Below are positions 3,359 to 61,435 of a stretch of 64,000 nucleotides of DNA, piece by piece. The DNA comes from Melastoma dodecandrum (lineage: Eukaryota > Streptophyta > Magnoliopsida > Myrtales > Melastomataceae), in the NCBI GenBank assembly GCA_029817715.1, contig JARUPY010000393.1, forward strand, positions 62,001 to 126,000. The letters are read 5' to 3'. Each line of letters begins with the position of its first letter. Within the stretch, counting starts at the first letter, position 1. The notes beneath the pieces are model-generated. The model was not told where the DNA came from and did not search any database. It saw only the letters and a program-made list of their open reading frames with translations. The translations under genes were made by a program, and so were the position numbers.

Positions 3359-3419
3359 TTCGACCTACGGCCAAGATTCTACGGGTCCGGGTGAAAGCCT
3401 GTCAATTTTAGCAAACCGC

Positions 3420-5956: not shown

Positions 5957-6104
5957 CGCCGTCCCACTGCCGATCCGGCTGCCCGCACCAAGGCGGCCGG
6001 ATCCACTCCCTTCAGTCACCTCGTCTCACGCTGCTCCTCGACCCTCCGCATGCGAGCCCGCGCGCTCGCGACATCCTCACCCCAACACGGATCCCGACAC
6101 TCCC

Positions 6105-8280: not shown

Positions 8281-8307
8281 AACGAGTTTCCTGCCGAAGA
8301 TTGGCTA

Positions 8308-9214
8308 AGAGCCCGTCCGATAAGGGCCTGAGGCGGGGTTGAGTGGCCGGGATGGCGATGATTCCAGGAGGGTGCTGAAGCCTGACCTGGAAGCGCCATG
8401 TGGACCCCGACCACCCGGCGGCAGCATAGCCGCGCGGGCCTTCGCTATGAAACCGATCTGACGGACGGCGAGTGGGCGGTGATCGAGCCACTGATGCCGA
8501 GGCCAGCGCCCTGTGGCCGGCCTCGGCTTTGGACGACACGGGAGGTCCTGAACGCCATCTTCTACGTTCTGAGAGGTGGGATCTCCTGGCGGATGATCCC
8601 CAAGGATCTGCCGCCGCGCTCGACCACGTTCGGCTACTTCAGCCGCTGGCGCGACACAGGGCTGTTCGGCCGGATCAACCATCACCTCGTCATGGCCGAT
8701 CGCGAGCGTGTCGGGCGGGAAGCCTCGCCGTCTGCAGCGGTGCTCGACAGTCAGAGCGTCAAGACCACGGAGAGTGGCGGGCCGCGCGGCTACGATGCCG
8801 GCAAAAAGGTCAAGGACCGCAAGCGCCAAGCGCTGGTTGACACGGAGGGGCGTGCACTCGTCCTCGATCCGCCACCTGCCGACGTGCAGGACCGGGACGG
8901 AGCCGTTCCGGTACTACGTCTGCCGTGCCGGACCTGCCTATTCATCGCCAAAGCCTTCCGACACCGGCTATGACGGCGAGCGCGACGATCATCGTTGTCT
9001 AGATCGTGCACACGCCGGCGGATCAAGTTGGCCTTGCTGTTCATCGGCGCCAGTGGATCGTTGAACGGCTCCTCGCCTGGATCAGCCGCAACCGACGCCT
9101 CTGGAAGGATCCGGAAGCGACTCTCGCCTCCGCACGAGCCTTCCTCTACGCCGCAGCCGTCATGATCCTCGTCAGACGCCTCGCCCGATCAGCCTGACTT
9201 CTCGGACGGACTCT
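8308..9214 (+). mobile_element. IS5-family insertion sequence, degenerate, with ends and target duplication
   Basis: The left end AGAGCCCGTCCGATAAG (8308-8324) and right end (9198-9214, reverse complement AGAGTCCGTCCGAGAAG) match at 15 of 17 bases. TA flanks both sides (8306-8307 and 9215-9216), the usual duplication for the IS427-type branch of IS5. The 907 bp length is normal for the family. Ends and duplication are intact although the transposase is broken, so it could still be moved in trans. A second, truncated copy starts at 19147. Confidence 0.8.
8398..9197 (+). pseudogene. IS5-family transposase, frameshifted
   Basis: The N-terminal frame (8398-8973) has the family start LTDGEWAVIEPLMP, WRMIPKDLPP and the DDE region AVLDSQSVKTTE..GYDAGKKVKGRKR-like segment. 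The frame is lost near 8930. The C-terminal catalytic part resumes in another frame from about 9006 (VERLLAWISRNRRLWKD..), with an in-frame stop near 9001. Intact proteins are about 270 residues. The residues around the second Asp are damaged, so the gene is non-functional as read. Confidence 0.8.
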
Positions 9215-9216
9215 TA

Positions 9217-9620
9217 GCGTTTCGCACGTCGGTGAAGACGGCATCGATATCAGGCCTCTTGGCCATGATCCTCAGGGCTTGGGTGTACGTCCACCGGAGC
9301 CGGTCGCAACTGAAGCGGCTCGCCTTATGGAGGACTTCGAGAGCCACCCCATCGTCTGGCGGGTCAGCGGCAGGGCCGGGGCCGTGGCGCGGGGCGGACG
9401 GTGGTGAGGCCGTGGCTCAGGCTCACGGTCTTTGGGTAGCCGTGCCCTTGGAACGAGGGCTTGCGGCTCCTAGAGCTGTCTTCCGCATCCGCGTGAGTTC
9501 GTGCACGCACTGTGCCAAATCAGGGAAACGCGGTGCGATCCCAGCGACCGTTCACTCCGGGGTGGCGACGTCGAGAGAGAAGAGTCCGACCTGCACCTCC
9601 TCGGCGAGCTTGATGCCGAC
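9217..9620. other. Gap with possible minus-strand gene remnant next to the IS
   Basis: No complete gene. On the minus strand, 9217 to about 9366 reads as roughly 50 high-GC3 codons (ALEVLHKASRFSCDRLRW...DIDAVFTDVRN). If the IS is removed, that frame continues on the far side for about ten codons and ends at a TAA near 8281. This may be the 3' end of a gene hit by the IS; no family was recognised. A second short frame near 9560-9620 (minus) ends GLFSLDVATPE. Confidence 0.25.
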
Positions 9621-18406: not shown

Positions 18407-19081
18407 ATGTCAAGCGAAACGCCCGGTTCGGGCAAGCGATCACGGGTTCGTGTTTCGCGTGGTGAGGAGCGGCGCGGCGAGATCGCGGAGGTCGCGGAGC
18501 GCGTGTTTCTCAAGCACGGCTTCGCAGAGACGACGATGCGGTTAGTGGCGGTCGAGGCCGGCGCTTCGACTGAGACGGTGTACCGTCACTTCGGCTCCAA
18601 GGACGAGATGTTCATCGAGGTGGTGGGCAATCGCACCCAGGAACTTCGCCAGCGGATCGAGACCGACCTCGAAAGTACGGGGCCACTCCCGACCGTCCTG
18701 GAATCTGTCGGTATGAACCTCTTTGGGGCAATGGTCATGCCGGAAGTGTCGGCGCTAGGGTGCATCATCGTCGGCGAAGTGCCCCGCAATCCCGCGCTCG
18801 GCGAGGCGTTCTACGCGATGGCGCCTGGCCGGACGCTCGCCAAGCTGACCTCGTACCTTACGGATGCTCGGGCCCGCGGCGATTTCATCGGGGACGACCC
18901 GCAGCTCGCTGCGAACATGTTCATCGGACTGATCATGGGGAAAATCCTGCCGGTTCGCCTCTTCATTCCGCACCTGGACGACTCCAGCCCTGAGCAGATC
19001 GAACGCCACGTCGGCGAGGCCGTGCGGATCTTCCTCAGCGTCTATCATCGAGGTGGGGCCGGAGGCGGCGGGGCGAAATGA
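18407..19081 (+). CDS. TetR/AcrR-family repressor, probable regulator of the efflux operon
   Basis: The start at 18407 is chosen over 18398 because GGAAG lies ten bases upstream. The 224-residue protein has a TetR helix-turn-helix (IAEVAERVFLKHGFAETTMRLVAVEAGASTETVYRHFGSKDEMFIEVV, about 28-76) and a C-terminal helical domain with the AefR-like feature GCIIVGEVPRNPALGEAFY and FIGLIMGKILPVRLF. Divergence from emrA-emrB-nodT with a shared promoter region is the classic layout for a local drug-responsive repressor. Confidence 0.88.
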   Translation: MSSETPGSGKRSRVRVSRGEERRGEIAEVAERVFLKHGFAETTMRLVAVEAGASTETVYRHFGSKDEMFIEVVGNRTQELRQRIETDLESTGPLPTVLESVGMNLFGAMVMPEVSALGCIIVGEVPRNPALGEAFYAMAPGRTLAKLTSYLTDARARGDFIGDDPQLAANMFIGLIMGKILPVRLFIPHLDDSSPEQIERHVGEAVRIFLSVYHRGGAGGGGAK

Positions 19082-19146
19082 CCGTTCACTCGGGCTTTGC
19101 GGCTGCCATGGCTTCACCTTGCTCATCGGGGAGCCTCGCCATCTTG

Positions 19147-19826
19147 GGGCCCGTCCGGTGAGGATCTGAGGCGGGGTTGAGTGGCCGGGATGGCGATGAT
19201 TCCAGGAGGGCGCCGAAGCCTGACCTGGAAGCGTCATGTGGACCCCGACCACCCGGCGGCAGCATAGCCGCGTTGGTCGTCGCCATGAAACCGAGCTCAC
19301 CGACGCCGAGTAGGCGGTAATCGAGCCACTGATCCCAAGGCCAACGCCTGTGGCCGGCCTCGCCTCTGGACGACACAAGAGGTCTTGAACGCCATCTTCT
19401 TCGTTCTGGGAGGTGAAAGCTCATGGCGGTTGATACCTAAGGATCTGCCGCCGCGCTCGACCACCTTCGGCTACTTCAGCCGCTGGCGTGACACAGCGCT
19501 GTTCGGCCGGATCAACCACCACCTGGTCATGCTGGATCGCGAGGGGATCGGACGGGAAGCCTCACCGTCCGCCGCGGTCCTCGACAGCCATAGCATCAAG
19601 ACGACGGAAAGCGGCGGTCCGCGCGGCTACGATGCCGGTAAGAGGGTCAAAGGGTGCAAGCGCCAAGCGCTGCTCGACATGGACGGGCGCACGCTCGTCC
19701 TAGATCTTCAGCGTGCCGACGTACATGACCGCGACGGGGCCGCGCCGGTGCTGTGCCTGTCGCGCTGGACCTTCCCGTTCATCACCAAGGCGTTCGCCAA
19801 TGCAGGTTATGCCGGCGACAAGCCAC
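19147..19826 (+). mobile_element. IS5-family element, 3'-truncated second copy
   Basis: GCCCGTCCGGTGAGGATCTG at the left, followed by the same 60-base leader as the copy at 8308, marks the left end. The transposase reading frame starts at 19236, has a TAG within 90 bases and several small frame losses, and keeps LPPRSTTFGYFSRW and SIKTTESGGPRGYDAGKRVKG. The element ends abruptly near 19815-19826, where it joins an ABC transporter gene. No right inverted repeat is present. Confidence 0.75.
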
Positions 19827-42781: not shown

Positions 42782-43417
42782 TCAAATCTCAGTTCCTTCG
42801 GCCAGGCTCAGAGCGTCCTCGACATCCACACCGAGGTACCTAACCGTGCTCTCAATCTTGGTATGGCCAAGCAGAATCTGGACGGCACGCAAGTTGCTAG
42901 TTCGCTTGTGTGTCAACGACGCCTTCGTTCGGCGCAAGGAATGGGTCCCGTAGTCCTCACTTCTTAGCCCGATGCCCGCAACCGACTCATCGACCAAGCG
43001 CGCATACTGCCTCGTGCTAATGTGCGTGACGCCGTCGAGCCGGCTCGGGAAGGCATAGTCGTCGAGCGTTCCGCCCCTGGCCTCCAGCCATGCCAGGATG
43101 CTGGTACGGGCGGGTTCGAGCAACTCGAACTGCACTGGTCGGCCGGTCTTGCGCTGGATGACGATGGCGCGGCTCCGGACGCGACCACCGCTGGCGAGGT
43201 CGCCAATCTTGAGCTTGACGATGTCGCAGCCTCTCAGTTTGCTGTCGATCGCAAGCTCGAACTTAGCCCGGTCGCGTGTGCGCCGTTCACGGTCGAGCCA
43301 GAACCGGATGGCCCAGACCTGCTGAGGTTTGAGGGCTCGTTTCGCCCCGAGCTTGCGGCCAGCGTTCCAGGCCGGCCGCCCTTTCGTGGCCGGATCGTGT
43401 GCTGAGTGTCCCATCAT
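42782..43417 (-). CDS. Short tyrosine recombinase/integrase
   Basis: The 211-residue protein from 43417 (GAGGAG upstream) has the catalytic-domain motifs: Arg in DSKLRGCDIVKLK, a Lys beta-hairpin region (VIQRKTGRPVQFEL), HSLRRTK, GHTKIESTVRYLG with the nucleophile Tyr. There is little N-terminal core-binding domain, so it belongs to a minimal integrase group. A paralogue of near-identical layout is at 57698 on the opposite strand. It could recombine element ends or be a resolvase-like enzyme. Confidence 0.85.
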   Translation of the reverse strand: MMGHSAHDPATKGRPAWNAGRKLGAKRALKPQQVWAIRFWLDRERRTRDRAKFELAIDSKLRGCDIVKLKIGDLASGGRVRSRAIVIQRKTGRPVQFELLEPARTSILAWLEARGGTLDDYAFPSRLDGVTHISTRQYARLVDESVAGIGLRSEDYGTHSLRRTKASLTHKRTSNLRAVQILLGHTKIESTVRYLGVDVEDALSLAEGTEI

Positions 43418-43751
43418 CTGTCTCCTCGCCGGCCCATGCCAGCGAGGCGAGGAGACACCCGAACCGAAGCTCTGGAGAGCGGGCATATGCGGACGTTCCG
43501 CACGCGACCCGTTGCGGCCGTATCAGCAGCCACGCAAGCTTACTGAAAGCGGTCATTCGCATGATCCATCGCTGTGGCCAGAGAGCATCACCCGAGCACT
43601 GAGAACCTCTGGATTAGAACGCTTCTATAAAATCGCACCAACACATTCGAATGCCTACAAACTAATCGTGTAGGAACGGATCCTCATCCGCTTGACCGTG
43701 CATGTTTCTCGATTGTAACGGCCGACCACTGTTCCAAGTTGGTTTGCGTCC
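43418..43751. repeat. Gap with an intergenic repeat piece
   Basis: CTGAAAGCGGTCATTCGC at 43543-43560 matches the core of the interspersed repeat. The sequence becomes AT-richer towards the receptor gene (43600-43750), presumably its promoter region; no clear Fur box was picked out by eye. Confidence 0.4.
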
Positions 43752-49940: not shown

Positions 49941-50001
49941 TGCACCTCTCCTTTTCTGTCGGTTCTGGGAGCGGCCGCCGCGGCCGCTTAGGCGTCTTCG
50001 C

Positions 50002-50193
50002 TCAGTGGGTCGCCATCGGGGCGCCGGTGTTCGATTGGATGGGGGCCTCGACGGCGGCAGTCGGCTGGGTACGCGACCGCCCCAGGGCTGCACGACGAGT
50101 CGGGACCGTGGGCCTGATGGCAGGGCATCCGCCGCATCCCCGGCAGACGGAACGGCCCCGACCGTCATCCGCGTTGCGAGCTGTCCAGCTCAT
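50002..50193 (-). CDS. 63-residue CxxCxxC microprotein with its own promoter
   Basis: The frame from the ATG at 50193 (GGTGAGAG upstream) encodes a basic peptide with SVCRGCGGCPAIRP at 15-28, a CxxCxxC cluster, then a Pro/Thr/Arg-rich tail ending APIQSNTGAPMATH. No signal peptide or membrane helix. It stands between the MFS gene and the hydroxylase gene in the same direction, behind a good promoter with a palindromic operator. It might be a metal-binding accessory protein, a modified-peptide precursor, or a regulator. No family was recognised. Confidence 0.55.
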   Translation of the reverse strand: MSWTARNADDGRGRSVCRGCGGCPAIRPTVPTRRAALGRSRTQPTAAVEAPIQSNTGAPMATH

Positions 50194-50219
50194 GGCGCTC
50201 TCACCGCTATGTAATCTGC

Positions 50220-50247
50220 AAAATATCACTGATATATCAACTGTCAA
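50220..50247 (-). promoter_or_regulatory. Promoter with overlapping palindromic operator
   Basis: On the minus strand TTGACA (50247-50242) and TATTTT (50225-50220) are 16 bases apart. Between them lies the perfect palindrome ATATCA-C-TGATAT (50223-50235) and the 9-mer GATATATCA (50231-50239), which recurs before the MFS gene. Placement across the -10/-35 spacer suggests repression. Confidence 0.6.
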
Positions 50248-50268
50248 CATAGTAATGCCATTGGGCTT

Positions 50269-50302
50269 ACCGGCGGGGACAATTCCTAATGTCCCCGCCG
50301 GT
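50269..50302. terminator. Terminator hairpin of the MFS gene, 12 bp perfect stem
   Basis: ACCGGCGGGGAC (50269-50280) and GTCCCCGCCGGT (50291-50302), loop of 10, starts five bases beyond the MFS stop. It separates the transporter transcript from the downstream promoter at 50220-50247. Confidence 0.65.
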
Positions 50303-50306
50303 ACGG

Positions 50307-51731
50307 TTAGTGCGATATCGCTTCGAGGGACTTGCCCTTGGTCTCGATGCCAAGGACGGCGACGCTCGCCGCGGCGATAACGAACGAGCCGGCGCCCAGG
50401 GCGAAGACGCCGCCATGTCCCAGCGTCGGCAGGATGATGCCGATCGCGTAGGGGCCGATCAGCGAGCCGATCCGGCCTACCGCCGAGGCGCAGCCGGCCC
50501 CCGTCGCCCGGGCGCGGGTCGGGTAGAGCTCGGGAGTGTAGGCGTAGAGCACAGACCACATACCGAACAGGAAGAACTGCATCATCAGCCCGAAGGCGAT
50601 GAGCCAGCCGAAGCTCGGCGAGTTGCCGTACAAGTAAGCCGCCACCGCGCTGCCGAGCAGCATCAGCACGGCGGTCGGCTTGCGGCCCCAGCGCTCGACG
50701 AGGATGGCAGAGGCGATGAAGCCGGGCACGCCCGCGAGCGAGATCAGGATCGTATAGGTCACCGACTTGGCGACGCTGTAGCCCGCGTCCTGCAGCAGGG
50801 CCCCTAGCCAAGTGGTGAGGCCGTAGAAGCCGAGCAGTGCGAAGAACCAGGTCAGCCAGATCATGACCGTGCGGCTCGCGTAGCCTGGGCTCCAGAGTTC
50901 GAGGAAGGAGAAGCGACGCTCGCCCTGGGCCTGTTCTGGCAGAACCTTCGGCTCGGACAGCGGCCGGCCGTCGAGGCGCGCGGCCACTTTCGTCTCGATG
51001 GACGTCATCACGCGGTCTGCTTCTTCGTGCCGCCCGCGGTCGGCCAGCCAGCGTGGGGACTCCGGCACTAGGAAGCGGATCACGAACAGGAACAGGGCCG
51101 GGAATGCCTGTGCCAGGAAGACGGCTCGCCAGTCGAAATAGGCCAGCAGCACGTAGCTGAGGCAGCCCGCGGCGATGAAGCCGAGCGGCCAGAAGCCTTC
51201 CATGATCGCGAGATAGCGCCCGCGCTTGGCGGTCGGCAGGAATTCCGAGACGATGGCCAGCGCCACCGGGAACTCCATACCCATGCCGAAGCCCAGGAGC
51301 AGGCGGGCATAGCCGAGCGTGGTGGCGTCAGGCGCGTAGGCGCACCAGAGGCTGCCGAGCCCCCAGAAGACCATGCTGACCTGGAAGACGATCTTCCGGC
51401 CGAAGCGGTCCGCCAGCATCCCGGAGATCGCGGCGCCTGCGAACATGCCGATGAAGCTCATGCTCGACAGCAGCCCCGCCTGGGCGGTGGAGAGGCCGAA
51501 CTCGGTCTTGATCGAGCCGAGCAGGAAGGTGAGCGAGCCGAGGTCGATCGAATCGAAGAACCACGCACTCGCGATGATGAGGAAGATGGTGCGCTGGAAC
51601 GCGGTCATCGGCAGCCTCTCCAGCCGCGCCGCGATCACCGCGCTCGTCCCGGCCGCGACGCGGCTTGGAACCTCGGTTGTGACCTTTTCCGGCAGCAGAT
51701 CGCCGGCGGGTATCGCAATTTGCCCTGCCAT
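50307..51731 (-). CDS. MFS transporter, acid/sugar symporter type
   Basis: The 474-residue protein from 51731 has twelve predicted helices after a 45-residue cytosolic N-terminus. Signatures: FFDSIDLGSLTFLLGSI, SMSFIGMFAGAAISGMLADRFGRKIVF (motif A), RLLLGFGMGMEFPVALAIVSEFLP (the family's R-x-x-x-G-x-G-x-G block), VPESPRWLADRGR (PESPRWL), VERWGRKPTAVL and YTPELYPTRARATGAGCASAVGRIGSL. This is the metabolite:H+ symporter style used for aromatic or organic acids, niacin and inositol. It is divergent from the GntR regulator, so its substrate is probably that regulator's effector or precursor. Confidence 0.88.
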   Translation of the reverse strand: MAGQIAIPAGDLLPEKVTTEVPSRVAAGTSAVIAARLERLPMTAFQRTIFLIIASAWFFDSIDLGSLTFLLGSIKTEFGLSTAQAGLLSSMSFIGMFAGAAISGMLADRFGRKIVFQVSMVFWGLGSLWCAYAPDATTLGYARLLLGFGMGMEFPVALAIVSEFLPTAKRGRYLAIMEGFWPLGFIAAGCLSYVLLAYFDWRAVFLAQAFPALFLFVIRFLVPESPRWLADRGRHEEADRVMTSIETKVAARLDGRPLSEPKVLPEQAQGERRFSFLELWSPGYASRTVMIWLTWFFALLGFYGLTTWLGALLQDAGYSVAKSVTYTILISLAGVPGFIASAILVERWGRKPTAVLMLLGSAVAAYLYGNSPSFGWLIAFGLMMQFFLFGMWSVLYAYTPELYPTRARATGAGCASAVGRIGSLIGPYAIGIILPTLGHGGVFALGAGSFVIAAASVAVLGIETKGKSLEAISH

Positions 51732-51796
51732 CTCTTGCCTCCCTGTATTCTTGGTATGCGCGTTGCGCTTCTGCAGGATATTTCTAATCGACGCAA

Positions 51797-51805
51797 GATA
51801 TATCA
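51797..51805. promoter_or_regulatory. Second copy of the GATATATCA operator-like 9-mer
   Basis: GATATATCA followed by GCGGTAT lies in the 166-base divergent region between the MFS and GntR genes, in the same orientation as the copy at 50231-50239. Shared sequence at two promoters of one cluster supports a GntR target. Confidence 0.5.
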
Positions 51806-51897
51806 GCGGTATTCCCCTTGCGCAGGGAAGAGCTCCGCCCCATGCACTGGGGTGGGGCAGCGTCGAGCGAGCTGGGCGGGGAGAGGGGGCGTCGTCG

Positions 51898-52650
51898 ATG
51901 AACTTCGGGACCGGTAAGACGACGTCGGTCCGTGCCGCGGAGCGTGGTGAGAAGAGGGCGAGGAAGGCCTTGAAGGGGTCGCCCGACGGGCCGGCCAACC
52001 AAGAGGATTTGCCCGACCTGACGCTGACGGACAGAGCCTATCAGCAGCTGGAGGAGATGATCACGACCCTCGTGCTCCCGCCCGGCATGGTGCTGGGTGA
52101 GCAGGACCTGGTCCAGCGTCTCGGGATCGGCCGCACCCCCATTCGAGAGGCTCTGCAGCGTCTGGCTCGCGACGGTCTCGTGATAGTCATGCCGCGGCGC
52201 GGCATCCTCGTCTCCGACATAAACGTACGCACGCAGCTACGTCTGTTGGAAACCCGGCGCGTCTTGGAGCGCTTGATCGCGCGCCTTGCCGCGGAGCGAT
52301 CCACAAAGGAGGAGCGGGAGGTCTTCGCGAGCATCGCGCAGGACATGCGCGAGGCGGCCTCGGCGTCGGACGACCTCGCATTCATGCGCCTAGATCGTCA
52401 GTTCAACGACCTGATCGCGACGGCATCGCGCAACGAGTTCGCGGTTCGCTCCTTGGAGAGCATGGCAGCCCTGTCACGACGTTTCTGGTACCAGCACTAC
52501 AAGCAGGCGGCTGATCTGCCGTTGACCGCCAATCTCCACGCCGACGTCTGCGAAGCGGTTTCCCGACGCGACGTAAATGCCGCCGGCGCCGCCTCAGACA
52601 AGCTCGTCGATTACATCGAAAGCTTTGCGCGCAAGACCTTGGATCTTTGA
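51898..52650 (+). CDS. GntR-family regulator, FCD (FadR-like) subgroup
   Basis: The 250-residue protein starts at the ATG at 51898 (GAGAGGGGG upstream). A 40-residue basic tail precedes the winged helix (LTDRAYQQLEEMITTLVLPPGMVLGEQDLVQRLGIGRTPIREALQRLARDGLVIVMPRRGILV, about 42-104). The FCD effector domain follows (RLLETRRVLERLIARLAAERS, FMRLDRQFNDLIATASRN, LHADVCEAVSRRDVNAAGAA), with the Asp/His residues that usually bind a metal and a small carboxylate. The effector is probably an organic acid. It is divergent from the MFS/PanB-like cluster. Confidence 0.9.
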   Translation: MNFGTGKTTSVRAAERGEKRARKALKGSPDGPANQEDLPDLTLTDRAYQQLEEMITTLVLPPGMVLGEQDLVQRLGIGRTPIREALQRLARDGLVIVMPRRGILVSDINVRTQLRLLETRRVLERLIARLAAERSTKEEREVFASIAQDMREAASASDDLAFMRLDRQFNDLIATASRNEFAVRSLESMAALSRRFWYQHYKQAADLPLTANLHADVCEAVSRRDVNAAGAASDKLVDYIESFARKTLDL

Positions 52651-53151
52651 TCCGCGTCGTTTGGTCAGTGCTGACCACACCGGATATCGAGCGTGTCGTA
52701 TTCGTTGATGCATCAAAGCTCTGGACCATCCGCCCATTATATTGGCGCCACCCTCATGAACACTTGCGCCACAGCTGTGAAAAGCTTCGTGCTGGATGTC
52801 CGCTTCCGGGACGCGGCCGATCATACTCAGACGGCGGCAACGGGCGCATTGCAGAACGTCCGCTCATGGGAGGAAGTCGACCTCCGTAGTTGACCCGTAG
52901 CCGACATTCACCTCGTCCGCTTTAGGGCCTCCCGCTCACCATCATCGAAAGGATTTGTTGAAAAGCCATACGGCACGCACCGATCGGGCAGGCGCCGGTC
53001 AGACCGGACTCCCGCTGGTGCAGCGGATGCGCCGGTCGCTACCACCGCTCCGCGGGCTTTATTCTCATCACTGGAAAAGCCAAGTCAGTTCTTGTATTGT
53101 TCTAGCGAACGTCGTCACACTCCGCTATCCGCTCGGGACTCTGGAGGGCTG
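52651..53151. other. Gap before the Argonaute system
   Basis: No gene is supported. GATGTCCGCTTCCGGG near 52796-52811 and GTCCGCTCATGGG near 52859 are repeat-family pieces. The stretch probably contains the effector promoter near 53040-53130, which is less GC-rich. Confidence 0.4.
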
Positions 53152-55722
53152 ATGTCGCAGCAAGATGCCATCCGTACGTTGACGCGTATCTTTCGCGCGA
53201 CCAACAGCGCACGCCCCGTGCTGCTTCTGGGGGCAGGCGCAAGCTTCAGCTCCGGCGTGCCCACCGCTGCCGAGAGCGTGAAGCGGCTGGCGAAGAGGGT
53301 GTATGCCGAGCAGATTCTCGGCGGTTCCGTCCCACCGGAGCAGGTCCGGCTTACCGAATGGCAGACCTGGTTGCACGGACAGCCGTGGTTCCTCAAAGGC
53401 GATGACCGGCTGGCCGAGAATTTTCCCCTCGTTGTCCAAAATCTGCTGAAACCGGCCGAATATCGCAAACAGCTTCTGCTCGACCTGATCCAGCCTACAA
53501 ACGGCATCGGCAAGGGCTATCATCGCTTAGCGGAGCTCATCGTCAAAGGGCTTGTCTCGACCATCTTGACTACAAACTTCGACATCTGCTTGCCGACCGC
53601 ACTCGGAGCGGTTCGGCAGCATATCGGACACATCGCAGAAGTGAACCGGCGAGCCGGCGACCTCAACGAGTTCAGCCTCTACGCCAAAGCTCAAATTGTG
53701 TGGTTACACGGGCGCGCCGAGCAGTACTCCGATCAAAACCTTGTCGACGAGGTCCAGGAACTCGATGCTGAGCTGGTAAGCAAGCCCATTCCGCTAGTCG
53801 CGGATAGCCCATTGGTAGTGATCGGATACCGAGGTTCCGAACCATCAATTATGGAACACTTCCTCGGTAACGGTGGCGCGCAAACCAAAAACTTCAAGAA
53901 CGGCGTTTACTGGTGCATCCGTAAAGGCGAGACCCTTCATCCCAACGTCGAGGCGCTCAAGAGGCGGATCGGCAGCAACTTCGAGCTTTTAGAGATCGAG
54001 GGCTTCGACGAACTGATGGATCAACTCGCGCGAGGTCTCAAATCCGAGGATCGCTATCTTCACGCGACGGCAAAGGGCGACGGCGCGGCCACTACCGCGT
54101 TCGACGACCAGGTCGTCCCAGACGCCACCGTGGCGGACCTCGACCATGACTTGATGATCGCAACGCTGAAGGAATATTGCGAGAAGCTCGGACGGCCCCC
54201 GGTTATGCACGACACGCTACCCGGCCTACTGAGAGAACAGGGTCTCCTCGTTCAGTGCGATGGCCGCGAAGCGCCGACTGCGGGCTGCGTGCTTCTGTTC
54301 GGCCGCGAGCCCCAACGCTGGTTTCCGCATGCAGTGATTTCAACCTCCATTAGCGGAAAGAAACGTCGCGTCTTCGAGGGCAATCTTATCGCACAGCATC
54401 GCGACCTGATTGAATGGCTAGGCCAGAGGGACGCGAATCCAACACTCAAGGTCAAGAAGCGCACAACGCACGACGAACGGCCAGCCTACCCTGAACGGGC
54501 ACTCGTCGAATTGCTCGTCAACATGCTCGTGCACCGCGACTACAGCCGGAGCGATCCCGCCCTCATCGCGGTATCGTCCGGCGAGAGCGTGCGCTTCTCG
54601 AACCCCGGGGGGCTGCCGGACTCGGTCATCGCGCAGCTCGAGGTCGATGACGGCGGCCGCTTTAAGCCTCGCGTCGAGGTCAGCGGCCTGCGAAATCGCG
54701 CGCTCTGCGACATCTTCTTCGGCATCCGAGCGATGGAGCGTGCGGGCACAGGTCTCGTCGATGTCGAGCAAATGCTGACCGACCATGGCGGCGGCGCCGA
54801 GTTCACAAACGACGCGCCGGGCGGGCGCTTCACAGCGTTGGTCAAGCAGCCCATTGCGTCGGCCGGATCAAAGTCCGTGGCACGGGATGAACGCCCGACC
54901 GAAGTCTACGTTCTGAACTTCATCCCTTTCGTCAGCATCCCCGACACTGTCTCGGTCGTGAAGCTGACCGGACCCTGGCGAGCACGGCCGACGGAGCTGC
55001 CGATCGATGAGGCCGGCACGTTCATCGTGCAGGGCGACGAGTACATCTGGAGCTTCGCACCTCTCCCGATCCTTCACGCCGTATTCGGTTCATACGCTCA
55101 TCAGGGCGCCGGCCGAGCCTGGCGGCGAAGCGAGATCGAAGCGGATCCCGATCGTCGGCGGGTGCTGTCCTGGCTGTTGCGAAAGCACTTCGAGCGTCAC
55201 CTGCGCGGGTTCGGTTTGCGCGGGCTGGTCATCGAGGAAGGCAGCAAGCGAGGGCGTCGCGCCTACTTCGAGGGCAACGCTGGCGGCGCCCGCTGCTACG
55301 TCTACGACTCTCCCGCCCGCAAGAACATCCAACGATGGGTCGTGAAACAACGCGGACCGGACGGCTACAAGGCGTGGTTCGAGAACGAGGGGTTCGGCTT
55401 CGAGGTGACCCAGATGGATGGGGCCTGGGGCGTCAGGATCAAGCCCTTCTACATGTTCACAGGACGCGACGCGAAAAAGCCGCTGCCCTCCTTCGCCCGG
55501 ACAGCGAAGGCGACCCGGCGCATGAAGCTCGACCGAAATCAGAACGTCGACAACGATCTGACCTTCTGGGGCAGGTTCCTGAGTCAGGGCGCGCAGACGA
55601 TCAACCTTGGGCAGCAGCATGTCGAGGATCTGATTCTCGGCGGCTCGTTTGTTAGTGTAGAAGTTATCGAGGAGGAGGCCGGCGGTGCAGCCGATCAGCG
55701 TTCGCATACAAAGGCTGCCTGA
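53152..55722 (+). CDS. SIR2 - RecG/DHS-like ATPase - APAZ effector of a short Argonaute system
   Basis: From the ATG at 53152 (GGAGGG upstream) the protein has 856 residues in three blocks. SIR2 NADase-like (about 15-295): LLLGAGASFSSGVP (24-37), TILTTNFD (137-144, substrate-binding Asn), IVWLHGRAE (catalytic-type His 186) and VVIGYRGSEPSI. RecG/DHS-like ATP-binding region (about 330-570): TAGCVLLFGREPQRWFP, LVELLVNMLVHRDYS, RFSNPGGLPD and GLRNRALCDIFFGIRAMERAGTGL. APAZ-like C-terminus (about 585-840): VYVLNFIPFVSIPDTV, RIKPFYMFTGRDAKKP and RNQNVDNDLTFWGRF. In characterised SIR2-APAZ/short-Ago pairs, guide-directed target recognition switches on NAD depletion and cell death or dormancy. The same role is inferred here. 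Confidence 0.88.
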   Translation: MSQQDAIRTLTRIFRATNSARPVLLLGAGASFSSGVPTAAESVKRLAKRVYAEQILGGSVPPEQVRLTEWQTWLHGQPWFLKGDDRLAENFPLVVQNLLKPAEYRKQLLLDLIQPTNGIGKGYHRLAELIVKGLVSTILTTNFDICLPTALGAVRQHIGHIAEVNRRAGDLNEFSLYAKAQIVWLHGRAEQYSDQNLVDEVQELDAELVSKPIPLVADSPLVVIGYRGSEPSIMEHFLGNGGAQTKNFKNGVYWCIRKGETLHPNVEALKRRIGSNFELLEIEGFDELMDQLARGLKSEDRYLHATAKGDGAATTAFDDQVVPDATVADLDHDLMIATLKEYCEKLGRPPVMHDTLPGLLREQGLLVQCDGREAPTAGCVLLFGREPQRWFPHAVISTSISGKKRRVFEGNLIAQHRDLIEWLGQRDANPTLKVKKRTTHDERPAYPERALVELLVNMLVHRDYSRSDPALIAVSSGESVRFSNPGGLPDSVIAQLEVDDGGRFKPRVEVSGLRNRALCDIFFGIRAMERAGTGLVDVEQMLTDHGGGAEFTNDAPGGRFTALVKQPIASAGSKSVARDERPTEVYVLNFIPFVSIPDTVSVVKLTGPWRARPTELPIDEAGTFIVQGDEYIWSFAPLPILHAVFGSYAHQGAGRAWRRSEIEADPDRRRVLSWLLRKHFERHLRGFGLRGLVIEEGSKRGRRAYFEGNAGGARCYVYDSPARKNIQRWVVKQRGPDGYKAWFENEGFGFEVTQMDGAWGVRIKPFYMFTGRDAKKPLPSFARTAKATRRMKLDRNQNVDNDLTFWGRFLSQGAQTINLGQQHVEDLILGGSFVSVEVIEEEAGGAADQRSHTKAA

Positions 55723-57187
55723 GCCCAAGCTCGCCTTTGGCGACGGCAAGACCGGCATCGAGCCGCGTCGTTTGCTGTCGGATGCGGGGCCCGTCGATAA
55801 CAAGCGTGTCGCTGAAATCCGCCTCGGCATCGTCGGCGCTGAGGCCGATGTCACGGCTGCGAGCGCCTGGCTGGAGCGGCTGAACGGCTACCTCCCGGCG
55901 AAGGAAGGTAATTCGCGTCGCTACCGCGACTGGCTGGGCGCCGAACGAGTGCTGGGCTGCCGCTTCATCATCGAACCCAGGTTCCTGCGTCCAGTCGACC
56001 AAGCGCGGTACGAACTCGCCCGGCAACGCGCCGATAAGGAAGGCTTCGACGAGCTGCTCGACCTCTTCGACAGCAAGATCTCCGGCTTGTTCGGAGACGT
56101 GCAGCCCGACTGCATCATCGTCTGCCTCGCGCCTGACGTCGCCGATCTTCGGATCAGCAATCCTGGGCTAACCGCGAGGGAACGCCGCGCATTGGAAGTT
56201 CTGCGCCAGGAGGAAGAGGCCGATCAGCTGGCGCTGTTCGCGCCGACGCCCGAGGAGCTCGAAGCCGCCGAGGACCTGCGCTCGCGCGCCGACGACCTGC
56301 TGTTTCGGACCTTCTACCGAGCGCTCAAGGCGCGGCAGATGACGCATGTCGGTCCGGTGCCCCTGCAGGTCCTCCGGCGTGACAGCATCGATCGGCCCGA
56401 CGACAAGGGTCAGAGCTTCGCAACCAGGGCTTGGAACATCGCCACCACACTTTACTACAAGGCCGGTGGGTTGCCTTGGCGCCCGGCAGACCTGCCGCCG
56501 AACATCTGCTTCGTCGGTGTCTCGTTCCACCACATGAAGCGCGGCGCTGACAATCTCGTCTACGCGAGTGTCGCGCAGGCATTCTCGACAGAAGTCGAAC
56601 CCTTCGCGCTCAAGGGAGCAACGATCCCGAAAGATCAGCGGCGCAACAAGCAGCCTTACCTTACGCAAGAGCAGGCTGAGGGGCTTCTAGAGGACGTGCT
56701 CAGCGCCTACGAGGCGCGCGCCGGCGTGCTGCCGAGTCGGGTCGTCATCCACAAGAGCTCCGCCTACGCACCCGAGGAGGAAGAAGGCTTCCAGCGCGCG
56801 GCGTCGAAAAAGGTGCCTGCTTGCGACCTGATCTGGATCCGCAGCACGCCTTTTCGTCTCGTTAAGAAGGGGACGCAGGAGCCTGCTCGCGGCACGTTGT
56901 GCACGGTCGGCGATGACCACTTTCTATTCACCAGCGGCTATGTCGAGTGGTGGAACGAGTATCCCGGACCGCACATCCCAGCGCCCATTCAGATCGGCGC
57001 GGTCGGCGAAACCGACATGCGCCAGCGCGCGGTCGAAATCCTCGCCTTGACCAAGATGAACTGGAATTCGACCGACGGAATGTCCCGGGCACCTATCACC
57101 CTTTCGTTCGCCCGCAAGGTCGGAATGCTCATGACCGAACTATCTGACAACCAGCATCCAAATCCCTCTTACAAATTCTACACCTAA
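55685..57187 (+). CDS. Short prokaryotic Argonaute (MID-PIWI, catalytically inactive)
   Basis: The GTG at 55685 has GAGGAGG six bases upstream and overlaps the effector gene by 38 bases. The 500-residue protein starts with the short-Ago signature LPEPKLAFGDGKTGIEPRR. The MID domain (about 40-160) would hold the guide 5' end. The PIWI domain shows NICFVGVSFHH (274-283), where active Argonautes have a catalytic Asp but Ser280 stands here; SRVVIHKSSAYAPEEEEGF (351-369); and LTKMNWNSTDG (455-465) with APITLSFARKVGML near the end. N and PAZ domains are absent. It is therefore a guide-loaded sensor without slicing, working as a dimer with the SIR2-APAZ partner. Confidence 0.9.
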   Translation: MQPISVRIQRLPEPKLAFGDGKTGIEPRRLLSDAGPVDNKRVAEIRLGIVGAEADVTAASAWLERLNGYLPAKEGNSRRYRDWLGAERVLGCRFIIEPRFLRPVDQARYELARQRADKEGFDELLDLFDSKISGLFGDVQPDCIIVCLAPDVADLRISNPGLTARERRALEVLRQEEEADQLALFAPTPEELEAAEDLRSRADDLLFRTFYRALKARQMTHVGPVPLQVLRRDSIDRPDDKGQSFATRAWNIATTLYYKAGGLPWRPADLPPNICFVGVSFHHMKRGADNLVYASVAQAFSTEVEPFALKGATIPKDQRRNKQPYLTQEQAEGLLEDVLSAYEARAGVLPSRVVIHKSSAYAPEEEEGFQRAASKKVPACDLIWIRSTPFRLVKKGTQEPARGTLCTVGDDHFLFTSGYVEWWNEYPGPHIPAPIQIGAVGETDMRQRAVEILALTKMNWNSTDGMSRAPITLSFARKVGMLMTELSDNQHPNPSYKFYT

Positions 57188-57356
57188 TCGGCGGCATTGA
57201 GGCTATCTGTTGGATGCAGCGAGCCTTGCTCGGTTGAAGCCTAATGGGTGTGCTAGCGGCGGTGCGGGCGGAGGAGGTGGCTCGTCGTGCCAGGTGTCGG
57301 GGGGTCGCGGCGCCTTCGCCGCCACAAACGAGTGTATCGTCCGGGAGGGGCTGTAG
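57188..57356. other. Short spacer after the Argonaute gene
   Basis: No terminator of clear strength; a GGCG..CGCC inverted motif near 57309-57322 (GCGGCGCCTTCGCCGC) could serve as one. Confidence 0.3.
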
Positions 57357-57503
57357 ATGACAGCAGACGAGGGCGTTCACCGCCTCCTCGCGTTCGTGAT
57401 TTGGGACGGAAGACCGCGCCTCGGCGGTGACGTCACCGACGCTTTCCGCCGCCTCGCTCTGGCGAGCGGCTTCGAGACAAGGTTCGTCTCTACGGCGAAG
57501 TAG
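57357..57503 (+). CDS. Possible 48-residue small protein after the Argonaute gene
   Basis: The ATG at 57357 follows GGGAGGGG at good spacing. The peptide (EGVHRLLAFVIWDGRPRLGG, then TDAFRRLALASGFETRF) has strong codon bias and a compact alpha/beta look. It lies between the Argonaute operon and the recombinase in the same direction. No family was recognised. Confidence 0.5.
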   Translation: MTADEGVHRLLAFVIWDGRPRLGGDVTDAFRRLALASGFETRFVSTAK

Positions 57504-57697
57504 CGGCCGACCACTCGAAGCTCGACACACGTTCGCTTCGTAGCAGCGTGTCGATACGGCTAAATGATGGGGTCAGGCGCAAAGCCGAGCGTCCGATCCC
57601 GGGCGGAGAACCAATGTCGGCTGCTAGCGCGCAGCCGGGGCCCGGGCAGATTGTAGTGGAGGTGGGATGCTGATGGCTCCTCAAACAGAGCCCCATC

Positions 57698-58318
57698 ATG
57701 CCTTCCACCAGTGACACCAGCCGCCGGCCGTGGAACGTCGGACGTCTCATCGGTCCCAAACCGCCTTTCAAACCCAAGCACATCTGGGCGATTCGCACCC
57801 GCCTGCAGCACGAGGGCCGTACCCGCGACCTCGCCCTGTTCAACGTCGCGATCGACAGCAAGCTTCGTGGCTGCGCCCTCGTCAAGCTGCGCGTGTCCGA
57901 CGTCCACCTCGGCGAGGGCGTGCGCCTGCGGACCACCGTCGTTCAGCAGAAGACCGGTCGACCCGTGCCGTTCGAGATGACCGAGACTACCCGTGAGTCG
58001 CTGGCGGCATGGCTGAAGCTGCGGGGGCTTCGAGCCAGCGATTGGCTGTTCCCGAGCCGCAGCCGACCGGGCGAGCACCTGACGACGCGCCAGTATGGCC
58101 GGCTCGTCGACGAGTGGGTGACGCTGATTGGCCTCGACCCGGCGGGCTACGGCACGCACAGCTTGCGCCGGACGAAAGTCGCGCTGATCTACCGGCGAAC
58201 CGGCAACCTGCGAGCTTGTCAGCTGCTCCTCGGCCATACGAAACTGGAAAGCACGGTGCGCTATCTCGGCATCGAGGCGGACGAAGCGCTCATAATGTCG
58301 GAGCAGACCGACATCTGA
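57698..58318 (+). CDS. Short tyrosine recombinase/integrase, paralogue of the gene at 42782
   Basis: The 206-residue protein shares its layout and many residues with the recombinase at 42782-43417: PKPPFKPKHIWAIRTRL, AIDSKLRGCALVKL (catalytic Arg), VVQQKTGRPVPFEM, GTHSLRRTK (HxxR), GHTKLESTVRYLG (His and nucleophile Tyr). The minimal N-terminus suggests a special integrase group. It is transcribed away from the Argonaute operon, 500 bases downstream. The two recombinases lie in opposite orientation about 14 kb apart. Confidence 0.88.
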   Translation: MPSTSDTSRRPWNVGRLIGPKPPFKPKHIWAIRTRLQHEGRTRDLALFNVAIDSKLRGCALVKLRVSDVHLGEGVRLRTTVVQQKTGRPVPFEMTETTRESLAAWLKLRGLRASDWLFPSRSRPGEHLTTRQYGRLVDEWVTLIGLDPAGYGTHSLRRTKVALIYRRTGNLRACQLLLGHTKLESTVRYLGIEADEALIMSEQTDI

Positions 58319-58326
58319 TCATTACC

Positions 58327-58350
58327 GCGGCGGCCTGCGCGGGCCGCCGC
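58327..58350. terminator. GC hairpin after the recombinase
   Basis: GCGGCGGCC (58327-58335) and GGCCGCCGC (58342-58350) form a 9 bp stem just after the stop at 58318. Between here and 58500 only a repeat piece is seen (TTCCGCTTCTGATACCG and AGAAGCGGACGTCC, 58395-58430). Confidence 0.5.
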
Positions 58351-58501
58351 ACCCAGCCCCCCACCGTCCGAGAAGGGTGGATTTCGGCCGTTCCGCTTCT
58401 GATACCGTTAGGTTCAGAAGCGGACGTCCAAGGATCCGCTGCACCTTTCGGAGCGGCCGAGTTAAGTTGAGGCTGCGCGAACAGTTTGGTGCTTGGAAGA
58501 G

Positions 58502-59986
58502 TTAGGCCACCATGGCTCGGGAAGCCTCGCGTACCTGCCGCGTCGAGGCATCGACCTCCTGTGTCGCGGCGGCGATCAAGCTGACGTTCTGGCTGATCTC
58601 CGAGACCGCGCTGGTCATGGCCTGCATGTTGAGCGACATCTCCTGAGCGACAGCGGCCTGCTGCTCTACGGCGGTCGAGATGGCCGACGAGATCTCGTTG
58701 ACCTCGCCGATGGTCCTGCCGATCCCAGAAATGGCCGTGGCGGCTTCGCTCGCGGCGGCCTGCGTCTGCACAATCTGGCTGCCGATGCTCTCGGTCGCCT
58801 TGGCGGTCTGGGTCGCCAGCGCCTTCACCTCGGAGGCCACCACCGCGAAGCCCTTGCCCGCCTCGCCCGCCCGCGCCGCCTCGATGGTGGCGTTGAGCGC
58901 CAGAAGGTTGGTCTGGCCGGCGATCGAATTGATCATCTCGACCACCTCCCCGATCCGCTGGGCGGCGGAGGCGAGACCGGTGACCACTTCCGAGGTGGCG
59001 ACCGCCTGATCCACCGCCCGCCCGGTGATCTGCAGCGCGCGACCGACCTGTCGGCTGATCTCGCCTACCGAAGAGGCCAGTTCCTCTGCGCCAGCGGCGA
59101 CGTTCTGCGTGTTGCCGGACGCTTGCTCGGACGCGCTCGCGGCGCCTACGGCCTGGTGGGTCGCGCGCGAGACGGCCTCCGCAATGCCGTCGAGGTCGCG
59201 GTCGACATCCCGGTGTAGTTCGGCCCGGCGGTGGCGCTCGGCCATGGCCGCGGTGGTGTCGGTGGCGAACTTGACGACTTTCACCAGCCGGCCAGAGGCG
59301 TCGCGGACCGGATTGTAGGTTGCCTGGATCCAGACGTCGCGTCCGCCCTTGGCGATGCGCTTGTACTCGGCCTGCTGGAACTCGCCCTTGCGCAGCATCT
59401 CCCAGAAGATCCGGTAGGCTGGGCTCTCGCGTTCGGCCGGGTCGACGAACAGGGAGTGATGCTGGCCCTTCGCCTCATCGAGGGAGTAGCCGAGTATCGC
59501 GAGGAAATTGGCATTGGCCGTGATGACCTTGCCGTCGAGGTCGAACTCGATGATGCCCTGCGAGCGGTCGAGGGCGTTGAGCTTGCCCTCGAAATCGGCG
59601 TTCCGCAGCTTCTGAGCCGTGACGTCACTGGCGCATTTGAAGACGCCGTACGGCTTGCCGTTCCGGTCCTTGAGCGGGCAGTAGCTGCCCTGGATCCAGA
59701 CCTCGCGCCCACCTTTCGCAATGCGCTTGTACTCGGCGGTCTGATGCTCGCCCCGGCGCAGGCTCTCCCAGAACTCCCGGTAGGCTGCACTCTCGCGCTC
59801 GGCCGGATCGACGAACAGGGAGTGATGCTGCCCTTGAATTTCCTCAAGCGTATAACCGACGAGGGAGAGAAAATTAGAATTTGCCGTGACGATCTTTCCG
59901 GCAAGATCGAATTCAATCAATGCATGAGAGGCATCGAGCGCATCGAACTTTCTCTTAGAATGCGTTTGGATCATAAACATCAGCAT
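58502..59986 (-). CDS. Soluble methyl-accepting chemotaxis protein with duplicated PAS domains
   Basis: The 494-residue protein has no transmembrane helix and no HAMP. Two PAS-PAC units (about 14-130 and 136-252) are close duplicates: [20 protein letters not shown] / [20 protein letters not shown] and the shared block [15 protein letters not shown]. Next is a linker with [20 protein letters not shown], then the signalling hairpin with [41 protein letters not shown], the conserved tip for CheA/CheW. It probably senses redox, oxygen or a small ligand in the cytoplasm (PAS cofactor unknown). It is oriented towards the recombinase and has no chemotaxis genes beside it. Confidence 0.92.
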
Positions 59987-60481
59987 GTCCGTTCTTAGTC
60001 AGTGCAAAAAAGATTCTCTATCAGTGGATATTTTTGTTCTTCATTTTGGAAATATCGTCGTTCTCATATCTCGTTGAGTCCCTATAGCTCATTTTCCTAT
60101 ATAATGAGTAGCTATTTTGGTCACTATTTAGTAATTGATTGCTCAAAAGGAATGGTTAACAAGCAAAACAAGCTTTTGACTGGCAGCGCATGATTTTTGT
60201 TTGTAAGCGCATCCCTGTTGGGAAGGAGAGCGTTAGAGTGAATGGTTGCCATCGACCTGCTGGCCTCAAGCAAAGGCATAACGCCAGCAAGCCATTGTTT
60301 CTTAAGTTTTTTTCCGCAGTTTCGTGTGCGCCTATCCCCTTCAGGGAGCATGGGGAAAAGGATTGTGATAAATCTTCTGTGATTTCAAAATCCCCGACGC
60401 CCCATCGACACCATTTCCCATCACAGCTATTGATTTTAGTCCAACACCGAGCAGCGATATTCCATTTGGCCGGCACGATTG
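59987..60481. other. AT-rich gap before the AraC gene
   Basis: Unusually AT-rich for this window (long T/A runs around 60010-60130), without a supported gene. It likely holds the promoters of the chemoreceptor and the AraC regulator, and marks the edge of foreign DNA. Confidence 0.5.
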
Positions 60482-61435
60482 ATGCAGACGCTCTTTTCTA
60501 CTGATGGGGTTCCTCGAAAAGATAGCTTTCAACTTTGGCGCGATGTCTGTGAAGATCGTTTAGTCCCCATGGCACAACGTCGCTTAGACGATGGACCTTT
60601 CGATGCTCAGATAGATGGCGTAAATATCGGAAGCTTTAGCTTCACAAAATTCTCGCTACTTAATGTTCACGCATCCACTACACCTCAAACTATACGTCAT
60701 TGTAATAACAAGAGCGATCATCTGTTTCTGAGTATGTGCATTGCTGGGGCAGTCGGCTCCGAGCAAAATGACAGATCAATCATTGCGAACGCCGGTGATT
60801 TTTCGCTAAGAGATACGAATACTCCATGGAAAATCGAACATAGTACTTACAGTGAGGTCATCGCGATTGGAATTCCTCGAAATCGAATAGAAGGCTTGTT
60901 AGGCGATGCTCGCCGCTTTGCGGGTCTGAAGATTGACGGGCATCATCCCGTGACATCTTTAGCGAGAGATTTTCTCCTTAGATTGATGTCCTTAGGCGAA
61001 CAATTGCAACCACACGCAGCCGAACGTATGGTTGATATTGGAGTAGATCTGATTATTGCGAGTGTCGCCGAGCGTATGGCGCTCGAAGATTTTAAATCTT
61101 CTCGTAGTACGATTATTCTTCAGCGTGCAATCGCGTTTATATCCGCAAATCTAAGCAAACACGATCTCGATCCAGCTTTAGTTGCAGTATCAGTAGGCGT
61201 ATCTTTAAGATATTTGCAGCAAATATTTCGCGAGGATGGGCGAAACATAGCGGCTATGATCTGGCAAGAGAGGCTAGGGCTAGCTGCAAGACGCCTATCG
61301 GATCCAAACTACTCGAATTTATCTCTTGGCGAGATTGCTTATGGCTGCGGTTTTATCGATCAGGCGCATTTTTCACGGCGTTTTCGCGATCGTTTCGGAA
61401 TAAGCCCCCGTGATTATCGCCAAGAGAAATTATAG
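60482..61435 (+). CDS. AraC-family regulator on AT-rich DNA
   Basis: The 317-residue protein from the ATG at 60482 has an AraC-binding-like sensor domain (SFQLWRDVCEDRLVPMAQRR, DGPFDAQIDGVNIGSFSFTKFS, NAGDFSLRDTNTPWKIEH). Two helix-turn-helix units follow (ALVAVSVGVSLRYLQQIFREDGRNIAAMIWQERLGLAARRL and LGEIAYGCGFIDQAHFSRRFRDRFGISPRDYRQ, about 225-315). This is the oxidoreductase/cupin-type sensor seen in FeaR-like regulators. Codons are markedly AT-rich compared with every neighbour, a sign of recent transfer. It converges on the acetyltransferase gene. Confidence 0.9.
   Translation: MQTLFSTDGVPRKDSFQLWRDVCEDRLVPMAQRRLDDGPFDAQIDGVNIGSFSFTKFSLLNVHASTTPQTIRHCNNKSDHLFLSMCIAGAVGSEQNDRSIIANAGDFSLRDTNTPWKIEHSTYSEVIAIGIPRNRIEGLLGDARRFAGLKIDGHHPVTSLARDFLLRLMSLGEQLQPHAAERMVDIGVDLIIASVAERMALEDFKSSRSTIILQRAIAFISANLSKHDLDPALVAVSVGVSLRYLQQIFREDGRNIAAMIWQERLGLAARRLSDPNYSNLSLGEIAYGCGFIDQAHFSRRFRDRFGISPRDYRQEKL

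What the first reader, a model, noticed from the sequence alone, without database searches (positions are those of the whole stretch)
53152..57187. Two-gene short Argonaute defence system (SIR2-APAZ effector plus dead PIWI protein)
Seen: a SIR2 motif set (GAGASFSSG, TTNFD, LHG), an APAZ-like C-terminus, and an overlapping 500-residue MID-PIWI protein whose first catalytic Asp is replaced (FVGVSF). Known: SIR2-APAZ/short-Ago pairs use RNA guides to sense invading plasmid DNA and deplete NAD. Inference: this locus is a complete abortive-infection system carried between two recombinases.
Basis: partly seen in the sequence, partly recalled or inferred. Interest (0 to 1): 0.85.

Follow-up and report, generated by a model that had tools for sequence, protein, structure and literature searches.

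The report
SIR2 short-Argonaute pair with ATP-binding-like module
A bacterium carries a two-gene defence pair in which an Argonaute that cannot cut probably recognises invading DNA and switches on a partner enzyme that destroys the cell's NAD; the partner also holds a third, ATP-pocket-like module whose role seems untested.

Summary
In detail: 53152-55722 encodes an 856-aa SIR2...APAZ protein and 55685-57187 an overlapping 500-aa catalytically dead short Argonaute. Between SIR2 (1-305) and APAZ (583-845) sits a 265-residue module that folds as a GHKL nucleotide-binding domain, with N-box Glu453/Asn457 invariant in 89 of 89 rows. This is therefore not a plain SPARSA: APAZ and pAgo look most like the nuclease (SPARDA/SPARHA) lineage, although a single SIR2 clade is not rejected (p-AU 0.07). 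The architecture is already catalogued: PADLOC, a 2018 survey and a 2023 'double-effector' class. I found no functional test in the papers searched. In 28 of 29 related genome loci the pAgo gene follows the effector. 'Between two recombinases' is only loosely true: one is adjacent, the other lies 9.7 kb away past metabolic genes. Most likely mechanism: RNA-guided recognition of invader DNA triggers assembly and SIR2 NAD+ depletion, with the GHKL module as a nucleotide-dependent switch (inferred). A good member of a known but apparently uncharacterised subtype.

The parts
53152..55722 (+). Effector gene, 856 aa: SIR2 - GHKL module - APAZ
53152..54066 (+). SIR2 NADase domain (residues 1-305); N142 at 53575-53577, H186 at 53707-53709
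54097..54891 (+). Central GHKL / HATPase_c_4 (RecG-C-terminal-like) module, residues 316-580
54508..54522 (+). N-box E453-L-L-V-N457 of the GHKL module
   Evidence: E453 and N457 in 89 of 89 rows
54601..54615 (+). G1-like box N484-P-G-G-L488 (Asn where canonical GHKL proteins have Asp, recalled)
   Evidence: N484 and G486 in 89 of 89 rows
54745..54756 (+). G2-like box G532-T-G-L535
   Evidence: G532 and G534 in 89 of 89 rows
54898..55686 (+). APAZ domain, residues 583-845
55685..57187 (+). Short Argonaute (MID-PIWI), 500 aa, GTG start, 38-nt overlap with the effector gene
   Evidence: PADLOC pAgo_I E 2e-136; PDB 9om4_B E 2e-56
56315..56317 (+). MID pocket position 1, Tyr211 (with K215, Q228, K259)
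   Evidence: 53 of 53 rows; Arg or His in the 11 printed rows from outside this clade
56522..56524 (+). Ser280 in place of the first catalytic Asp of PIWI
57698..58318 (+). Short tyrosine recombinase (206 aa), partly co-inherited with the pair in L008; not part of the mechanism
   Evidence: Pfam Phage_integrase E 7e-17
52892..58379 (.). Stretch shared with L008 (96.6% over 52892-57323, 93.5% over 57917-58379), apart from 593 bp at 57324-57916; flanks differ: possibly a mobile cassette

Best explanation
A short-Argonaute abortive-infection system of the 'SIR2-Schlafen/histidine-kinase-APAZ' subtype, probably S2B-like. The dead MID-PIWI protein and the APAZ domain form the guide-binding sensor, probably with 5'-phosphorylated RNA against invader DNA. 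Target pairing drives higher-order assembly that brings SIR2 domains together and switches on NAD+ hydrolysis, stopping or killing the infected cell. The central GHKL module binds a nucleotide and acts as an assembly or licensing switch between sensor and NADase. Shown here: gene pair, three domains, intact SIR2 dyad, dead PIWI, conserved MID pocket, predicted GHKL fold with invariant N-box, co-occurrence of the two genes. Inferred from studied relatives: guide type, target, NADase activity, assembly. Inferred only from fold: nucleotide binding and its gating role.
For: Profiles for both proteins and per piece; folds of all three modules. N142 and H186, whose alanine mutants lost NADase activity in GsSir2 (passages of PMC10781750), are kept in 88 and 89 of 89 rows, as are F143 and D144 (89 of 89) and Y226 (86 of 89) (matched to GsSir2 by motif and equal numbering, not by a printed alignment). 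PIWI dead and MID pocket kept in 53 of 53 rows. In 28 of 29 genome loci the pAgo gene is downstream; the 29th ends near a contig edge and its other half appears to be L035, a second contig of the same strain. The four modules have similar histories: pairwise distance correlations 0.855-0.950 over 24 systems, Mantel 0 of 2000 each (host relatedness not controlled). dN/dS against L009 is 0.03-0.07 in all four. Defence or conjugation genes lie beside some relatives.
Against: No activity, guide or phenotype is testable here. The canonical adenine-binding Asp of GHKL domains is Asn484 in 89 of 89 rows, so ATP need not be the ligand. The module is the part with the highest dN/dS in the complete comparisons (0.074 against 0.027-0.048 with L009; 0.353 against 0.196-0.229 with L012). 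The window protein scores below Pfam's cut-off for HATPase_c_4 (24.8 against 26). pTM of the full effector is 0.49, so domain arrangement is unknown. The lineage claim is not firmly resolved (p-AU 0.0725 for one SIR2 clade).
Confidence: 0.75

Rival explanations
1. The central module is only a structural spacer or scaffold; the pair works exactly like SPARSA and no nucleotide is involved.
For: The module's adenine-binding Asp is Asn; it has the highest dN/dS of the parts against L009 and L012; standard SPARSA has only a short linker there (PMC10781750 passages).
Against: 37 of 265 module residues are invariant, about the same share as SIR2 (44 of 305) and APAZ (36 of 258), and N-box Glu and Asn and the G-box glycines are among them; a passive spacer need not keep a pocket.
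Confidence: 0.3
2. A true double effector: the GHKL module is a second toxin (ATPase or kinase) acting next to the NADase, as a 2023 paper suggests for SIR2 plus 'histidine kinase' APAZ proteins.
For: Named so in PMC10810196 (passages) and in PADLOC PDLC02418 'SIR2-Kinase'; N-box Glu as in GHKL ATPases (recalled).
Confidence: 0.15
3. Ordinary SPARSA (S1B) that simply gained an insert; resemblance to the nuclease lineage is tree error.
For: Among solved structures the SIR2 part is closest in sequence to GsSir2; one SIR2 clade is not rejected, p-AU 0.0725; the tool warned of long branches.
Against: pAgo groups with the SMEK/DUF4365 side at 93/88 (82/77 with the archaeal row in); pAgo hits SPARHA/SPARDA at E 2e-56 to 2e-45 but SPARSA 8in8_C at 2e-18; the APAZ piece scores 47.5 bits on a REase and 13.2 on standard SIR2 profiles.
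Confidence: 0.15
4. A decayed or silent locus without function in this host.
For: One close relative (L008, a MAG contig) has the effector frame broken in two.
Against: Window genes are intact; dN/dS 0.03-0.07 against L009.
Confidence: 0.05

Closest known systems
PADLOC PDLC02402/PDLC02418 'SIR2-(Kinase-)PNTD1-PNTD2'; [quoted passage not shown] 2023 'double-effector' short pAgos; 'DHS-like-APAZ' of S2B
   Same: Same architecture as far as described: SIR2, Schlafen/RecG/histidine-kinase-type module, APAZ, with a separate short pAgo (S2B wording). That og_40, 'DHS-like' and this protein are one group is my inference.
   Different: Window protein scores 515 bits on PDLC02402 against 1394 for L057: a divergent branch. 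I found no functional test of this subtype.
SPARSA (GsSir2/Ago, 8in8, 8jkz, 8y80)
   Same: SIR2 NADase dyad N142/H186, APAZ, dead short pAgo, two genes.
   Different: 265-residue GHKL insert; MID position 1 Tyr instead of His (two SPARSA-type rows compared); APAZ and pAgo nearer the nuclease lineage.
SPARDA / SPARHA (9jsb, 9qbp, 9om4)
   Different: Effector is SIR2 plus GHKL, not a nuclease.
DIP2311 (3lmm) and other HATPase_c_4 proteins
   Different: No AlbA_2 DNA-binding domain matched in Pfam here; such proteins often carry one (recalled).

Membership tests
Short prokaryotic Argonaute / APAZ system | MID-PIWI protein without PAZ, PIWI tetrad lost | tested here: met
   500 aa, pAgo_I profile, Ser280 for the first Asp in 53 of 53 rows
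Short prokaryotic Argonaute / APAZ system | APAZ partner in the same operon | tested here: met
   38-nt overlap
SPARSA (S1B) | SIR2 domain with catalytic N/H pair | tested here: met
   N142, H186
SPARSA (S1B) | SIR2 joined to APAZ by a short linker (309-331 in GsSir2) | tested here: not met
   265-residue GHKL module in between
SPARSA (S1B) | pAgo of the SIR2 lineage | tested here: inconclusive
   Best tree places it with the nuclease side, 93/88; one SIR2 clade p-AU 0.0725; two SPARSA rows only
SPARSA (S1B) | Guide-RNA/target-DNA triggered NAD+ hydrolysis | not testable with these tools
   needs biochemistry
'SIR2-Schlafen/kinase-APAZ' subtype | Full-length profile match to the catalogued architecture | tested here: met
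   PDLC02402, residues 18-830 of the protein, E 9e-155
GHKL / HATPase_c_4 domain | GHKL fold | tested here: met
GHKL / HATPase_c_4 domain | N-box ExxxN | tested here: met
   E453, N457 in 89 of 89 rows
GHKL / HATPase_c_4 domain | G1-box Asp (adenine contact; recalled) | tested here: not met
   Asn484 in 89 of 89 rows; Ser in L057 and in the two RecG-C-like relatives compared
GHKL / HATPase_c_4 domain | Pfam cut-off for HATPase_c_4 | tested here: not met
   24.8 bits against 26 for the window module; of 8 proteins scanned only L009 passes, 26.9
Histidine kinase (as in 'double effector') | Phospho-acceptor (DHp) domain | tested here: inconclusive
   no Pfam match for one in the effector, nor in the 6 isolated modules and 2 further full-length effectors; fold searches do not exclude it
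RecG helicase | helicase motor domains | tested here: inconclusive
   none matched in Pfam; 'RecG' is only part of the Pfam domain name

The most novel reading that the evidence does not exclude
A coincidence-gated immune enzyme: a short Argonaute whose NADase fires only when a guide-matched target is bound and a GHKL pocket is in the right nucleotide state, so the cell's own energy charge or an unusual nucleotide (Asn instead of the adenine-binding Asp) tunes the decision to die.
Probability: 0.3. Interest if true: 0.72.

Novelty: new member of a known kind. Interest (0 to 1): 0.45.

Why it matters
Short Argonautes are about 60% of prokaryotic Argonautes (PMC10810196 passages), and systems with TIR, SIR2, DREN and HNH effectors have solved structures. 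This catalogued but apparently untested subtype puts a NADase on what looks like a nuclease-type chassis and inserts a conserved nucleotide-binding fold between sensor and effector. It makes a direct question testable with point mutants: does a metabolite state license Argonaute-triggered cell death?

Tried and rejected
Rejected: plain SPARSA membership (GHKL insert, lineage); RecG helicase and histidine kinase readings of the middle module (only the GHKL part is seen); a phage-borne system (one viral-contig scan: 15 stretches matched a pattern, none confirmed; 4 phage records matched in part, 0 of 4 over most of the query); a composite element bounded by the two recombinases (metabolic genes in between; no shared direct word of 9 bases between 52751-53050 and 58251-58550; a few inverted words, the longest 12 bases). 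Plasmids: 1 of 11 matching records holds most of the query. Rfam at gathering threshold found nothing in the window and ARAGORN no tRNA, so no tRNA attachment site is apparent. Paper searches for APAZ with RecG and for GHKL/ATP-binding terms found nothing; APAZ with Schlafen gave two papers, neither testing this subtype in the passages seen; a search for APAZ alone since 2024 held 714 papers, of which 40 were listed. Library limits: no preprints, few subscription papers; a paper on SPARSA tetramerisation was not held.

Rows left out: A1 holds the window protein and 88 of the 120 listed homologues, picked by length and by hand (102 of 122 held proteins were 780-930 aa long); A2 the window pAgo and 52 of 120 listed. 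Tree references came from plasmid records only, with two SPARSA rows; an archaeal row (L048) was dropped in the second tree as a long branch; the L042 pAgo (two pieces) and the Pantoea L039 SIR2 protein were not used. One search left out L008, L015, L019, L031 and L034-L036; A3 left out L008, L015, L019, L034-L036 and L037. dN/dS was also computed with L037 (0.126-0.28; SIR2 not computable) and L012 (0.196-0.353).
Full report
WHAT IS THERE. Two overlapping plus-strand genes: 53152-55722 (856 aa) and 55685-57187 (500 aa, GTG). The second starts inside the first, overlapping it by 38 nt, behind an AGGAGG-like site. PADLOC profiles cover the first over residues 18-830 (Aga_SIR2-PNTD1-PNTD2, E 9e-155) and the second over 7-499 (pAgo_I, E 2e-136). 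NCBIfam matched neither. Pfam matches were all below their cut-offs: HATPase_c_4 22.4 bits and SIR2_2 16.1 bits in the first, and a chance-level DUF4158 in the second.

CONSERVATION. In 89 rows (the window and 88 chosen homologues) N142 is kept in 88, H186, F143 and D144 in 89, Y226 in 86. In GsSir2, N142A, H186A, Y226A, D144A and F143A lost NADase activity (passages of PMC10781750); I matched these residues by motif and equal numbering. The GHKL module keeps E453, N457, H461, R462, N484, G486, R514, N515, G532 and G534 in 89 of 89; invariant positions are 44 of 305 (SIR2), 37 of 265 (module), 36 of 258 (APAZ). The adenine-contact Asp of canonical GHKL proteins (recalled) is Asn484 here, and Ser in L057 and two RecG-C-like relatives, so the ligand is open. 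In 53 pAgo rows Y211, K215, Q228, K259 and S280 are all invariant. A survey says the short clade is almost all HK/RK at the first two MID positions (PMC6299218 passages). Of the 14 rows printed, the 3 of this clade have Tyr, the two SPARSA rows His, and the other 9 Arg. Mapping of these positions onto the YKQTNK motif is by alignment and spacing, not by structure.

FAMILY. In genome contigs 29 loci were found, by their record titles mostly Alphaproteobacteria and Acidobacteriota; in 28 of 29 the pAgo gene follows the effector directly. The remaining one, L031, ends near its contig edge, and L035 from the same strain appears to hold the rest. Distances of SIR2, module, APAZ and pAgo over 24 systems correlate at 0.855-0.950, as expected if the modules travel together; host relatedness was not controlled. 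Against L009 dN/dS is 0.042 (SIR2), 0.074 (module), 0.048 (APAZ) and 0.027 (pAgo), with synonymous sites near saturation; against L012 it is 0.196-0.353, again highest for the module. Plasmids: 1 of 11 matching records holds most of the query. That plasmid has type I restriction genes and an AbiEi antitoxin next door. Of 10 hand-picked neighbour proteins of other loci, 3 matched PADLOC defence profiles; of another, overlapping 10, 2 are conjugation coupling proteins.

LINEAGE. pAgo matches SPARHA, SPARDA and SPARTA chains at E 2e-56 to 3e-34 but SPARSA at 2e-18. The APAZ piece scores 47.5 bits on a REase-APAZ profile and 13.2 on standard SIR2-APAZ profiles. In a tree of 32 pAgos the clade falls on the SMEK/DUF4365 side (93/88, not fully supported; 82/77 in the 33-row tree with an archaeal row); a single SIR2 clade is not rejected (p-AU 0.0725), nor is grouping with TIR (0.132), and the tool warned of long branches. 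[quoted passage not shown] So SIR2 may have been put on a nuclease-type chassis, but this is a lean, not a proof.

SETTING. The window is in a 571-kb contig of a 373-Mb, 607-contig assembly, so probably (inference) a bacterium in a eukaryote-sized assembly. The best rows for the region around the pair are Methylobacterium plasmids, each covering at most 8%. GC is 58% over 53000-54499 against 66-67% over 50000-51999 and 66-68% over 58000-59499, though 50% over 59500-60499. L008, a MAG contig labelled Mycobacterium (label doubtful), shares 52892-57323 at 96.6% and 57917-58379 at 93.5%, lacking the stretch between, with no match beyond: this suggests a moved cassette with a recombinase at its edge. 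The upstream recombinase is a 57% identical paralogue 9.7 kb away.

MECHANISM. By analogy with SPARSA and SPARDA, where target DNA drives filament formation and effector activation (PMC12205087 passages), I propose: guide RNA held by MID-PIWI and APAZ; target DNA pairing; assembly; SIR2 activation; NAD+ loss. The added step, a nucleotide-dependent GHKL switch, rests on fold and invariant pocket residues only. The 2023 paper calls such proteins double effectors that may perform two functions (passages of PMC10810196). I prefer a switch because the nearest fold is RecG-C-terminal-like, not a kinase, and no phospho-acceptor domain matched.

NOVELTY. The architecture is catalogued; no functional study was found in nine paper searches, in a library without preprints and most subscription journals and with capped listings. 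Papers were seen as listings or passages, and one section; none was read whole. The window system is a divergent branch of a known, apparently untested subtype.

Noticed in passing
L057 (G000:C126:35000-44900), 3138-5990 and 5986-7479: A second, divergent SIR2-GHKL-APAZ (950 aa) plus pAgo pair (about 30% and 33% identical) on another contig of the same assembly; it fits the PADLOC model far better than the window pair does.
   Followed up: partly
window 42785-43486 (-) and 57698-58318 (+): Two 57%-identical short tyrosine recombinases (234 and 206 aa) in which Pfam matched only the catalytic domain; DNA like the downstream one and its flanks is found in 196 plasmid records.
   Followed up: partly
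window 55685-57187: First MID-pocket residue is Tyr (as in long Argonautes) in 53 of 53 rows, unlike the Arg/His of the other short pAgos compared; may change 5'-base preference of the guide.
   Followed up: partly
L031 and L035: The Azorhizobium doebereinerae system appears split over two contigs of the assembly.
   Followed up: no
L008 7941-8531 and 8547-10568: Closely related effector gene with a broken frame around residues 176-183 in a MAG contig labelled Mycobacterium; biology or assembly error cannot be told.
   Followed up: no
window about 8302-9220 and 18900-19820: Stretches matching IS5-family transposases of Methylobacterium plasmids (extents approximate).
   Followed up: no
G000 contigs C126, C369, C488: Further SIR2-like matches in the same 373-Mb assembly; apart from C126 not examined beyond a tblastn on C488.
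   Followed up: no
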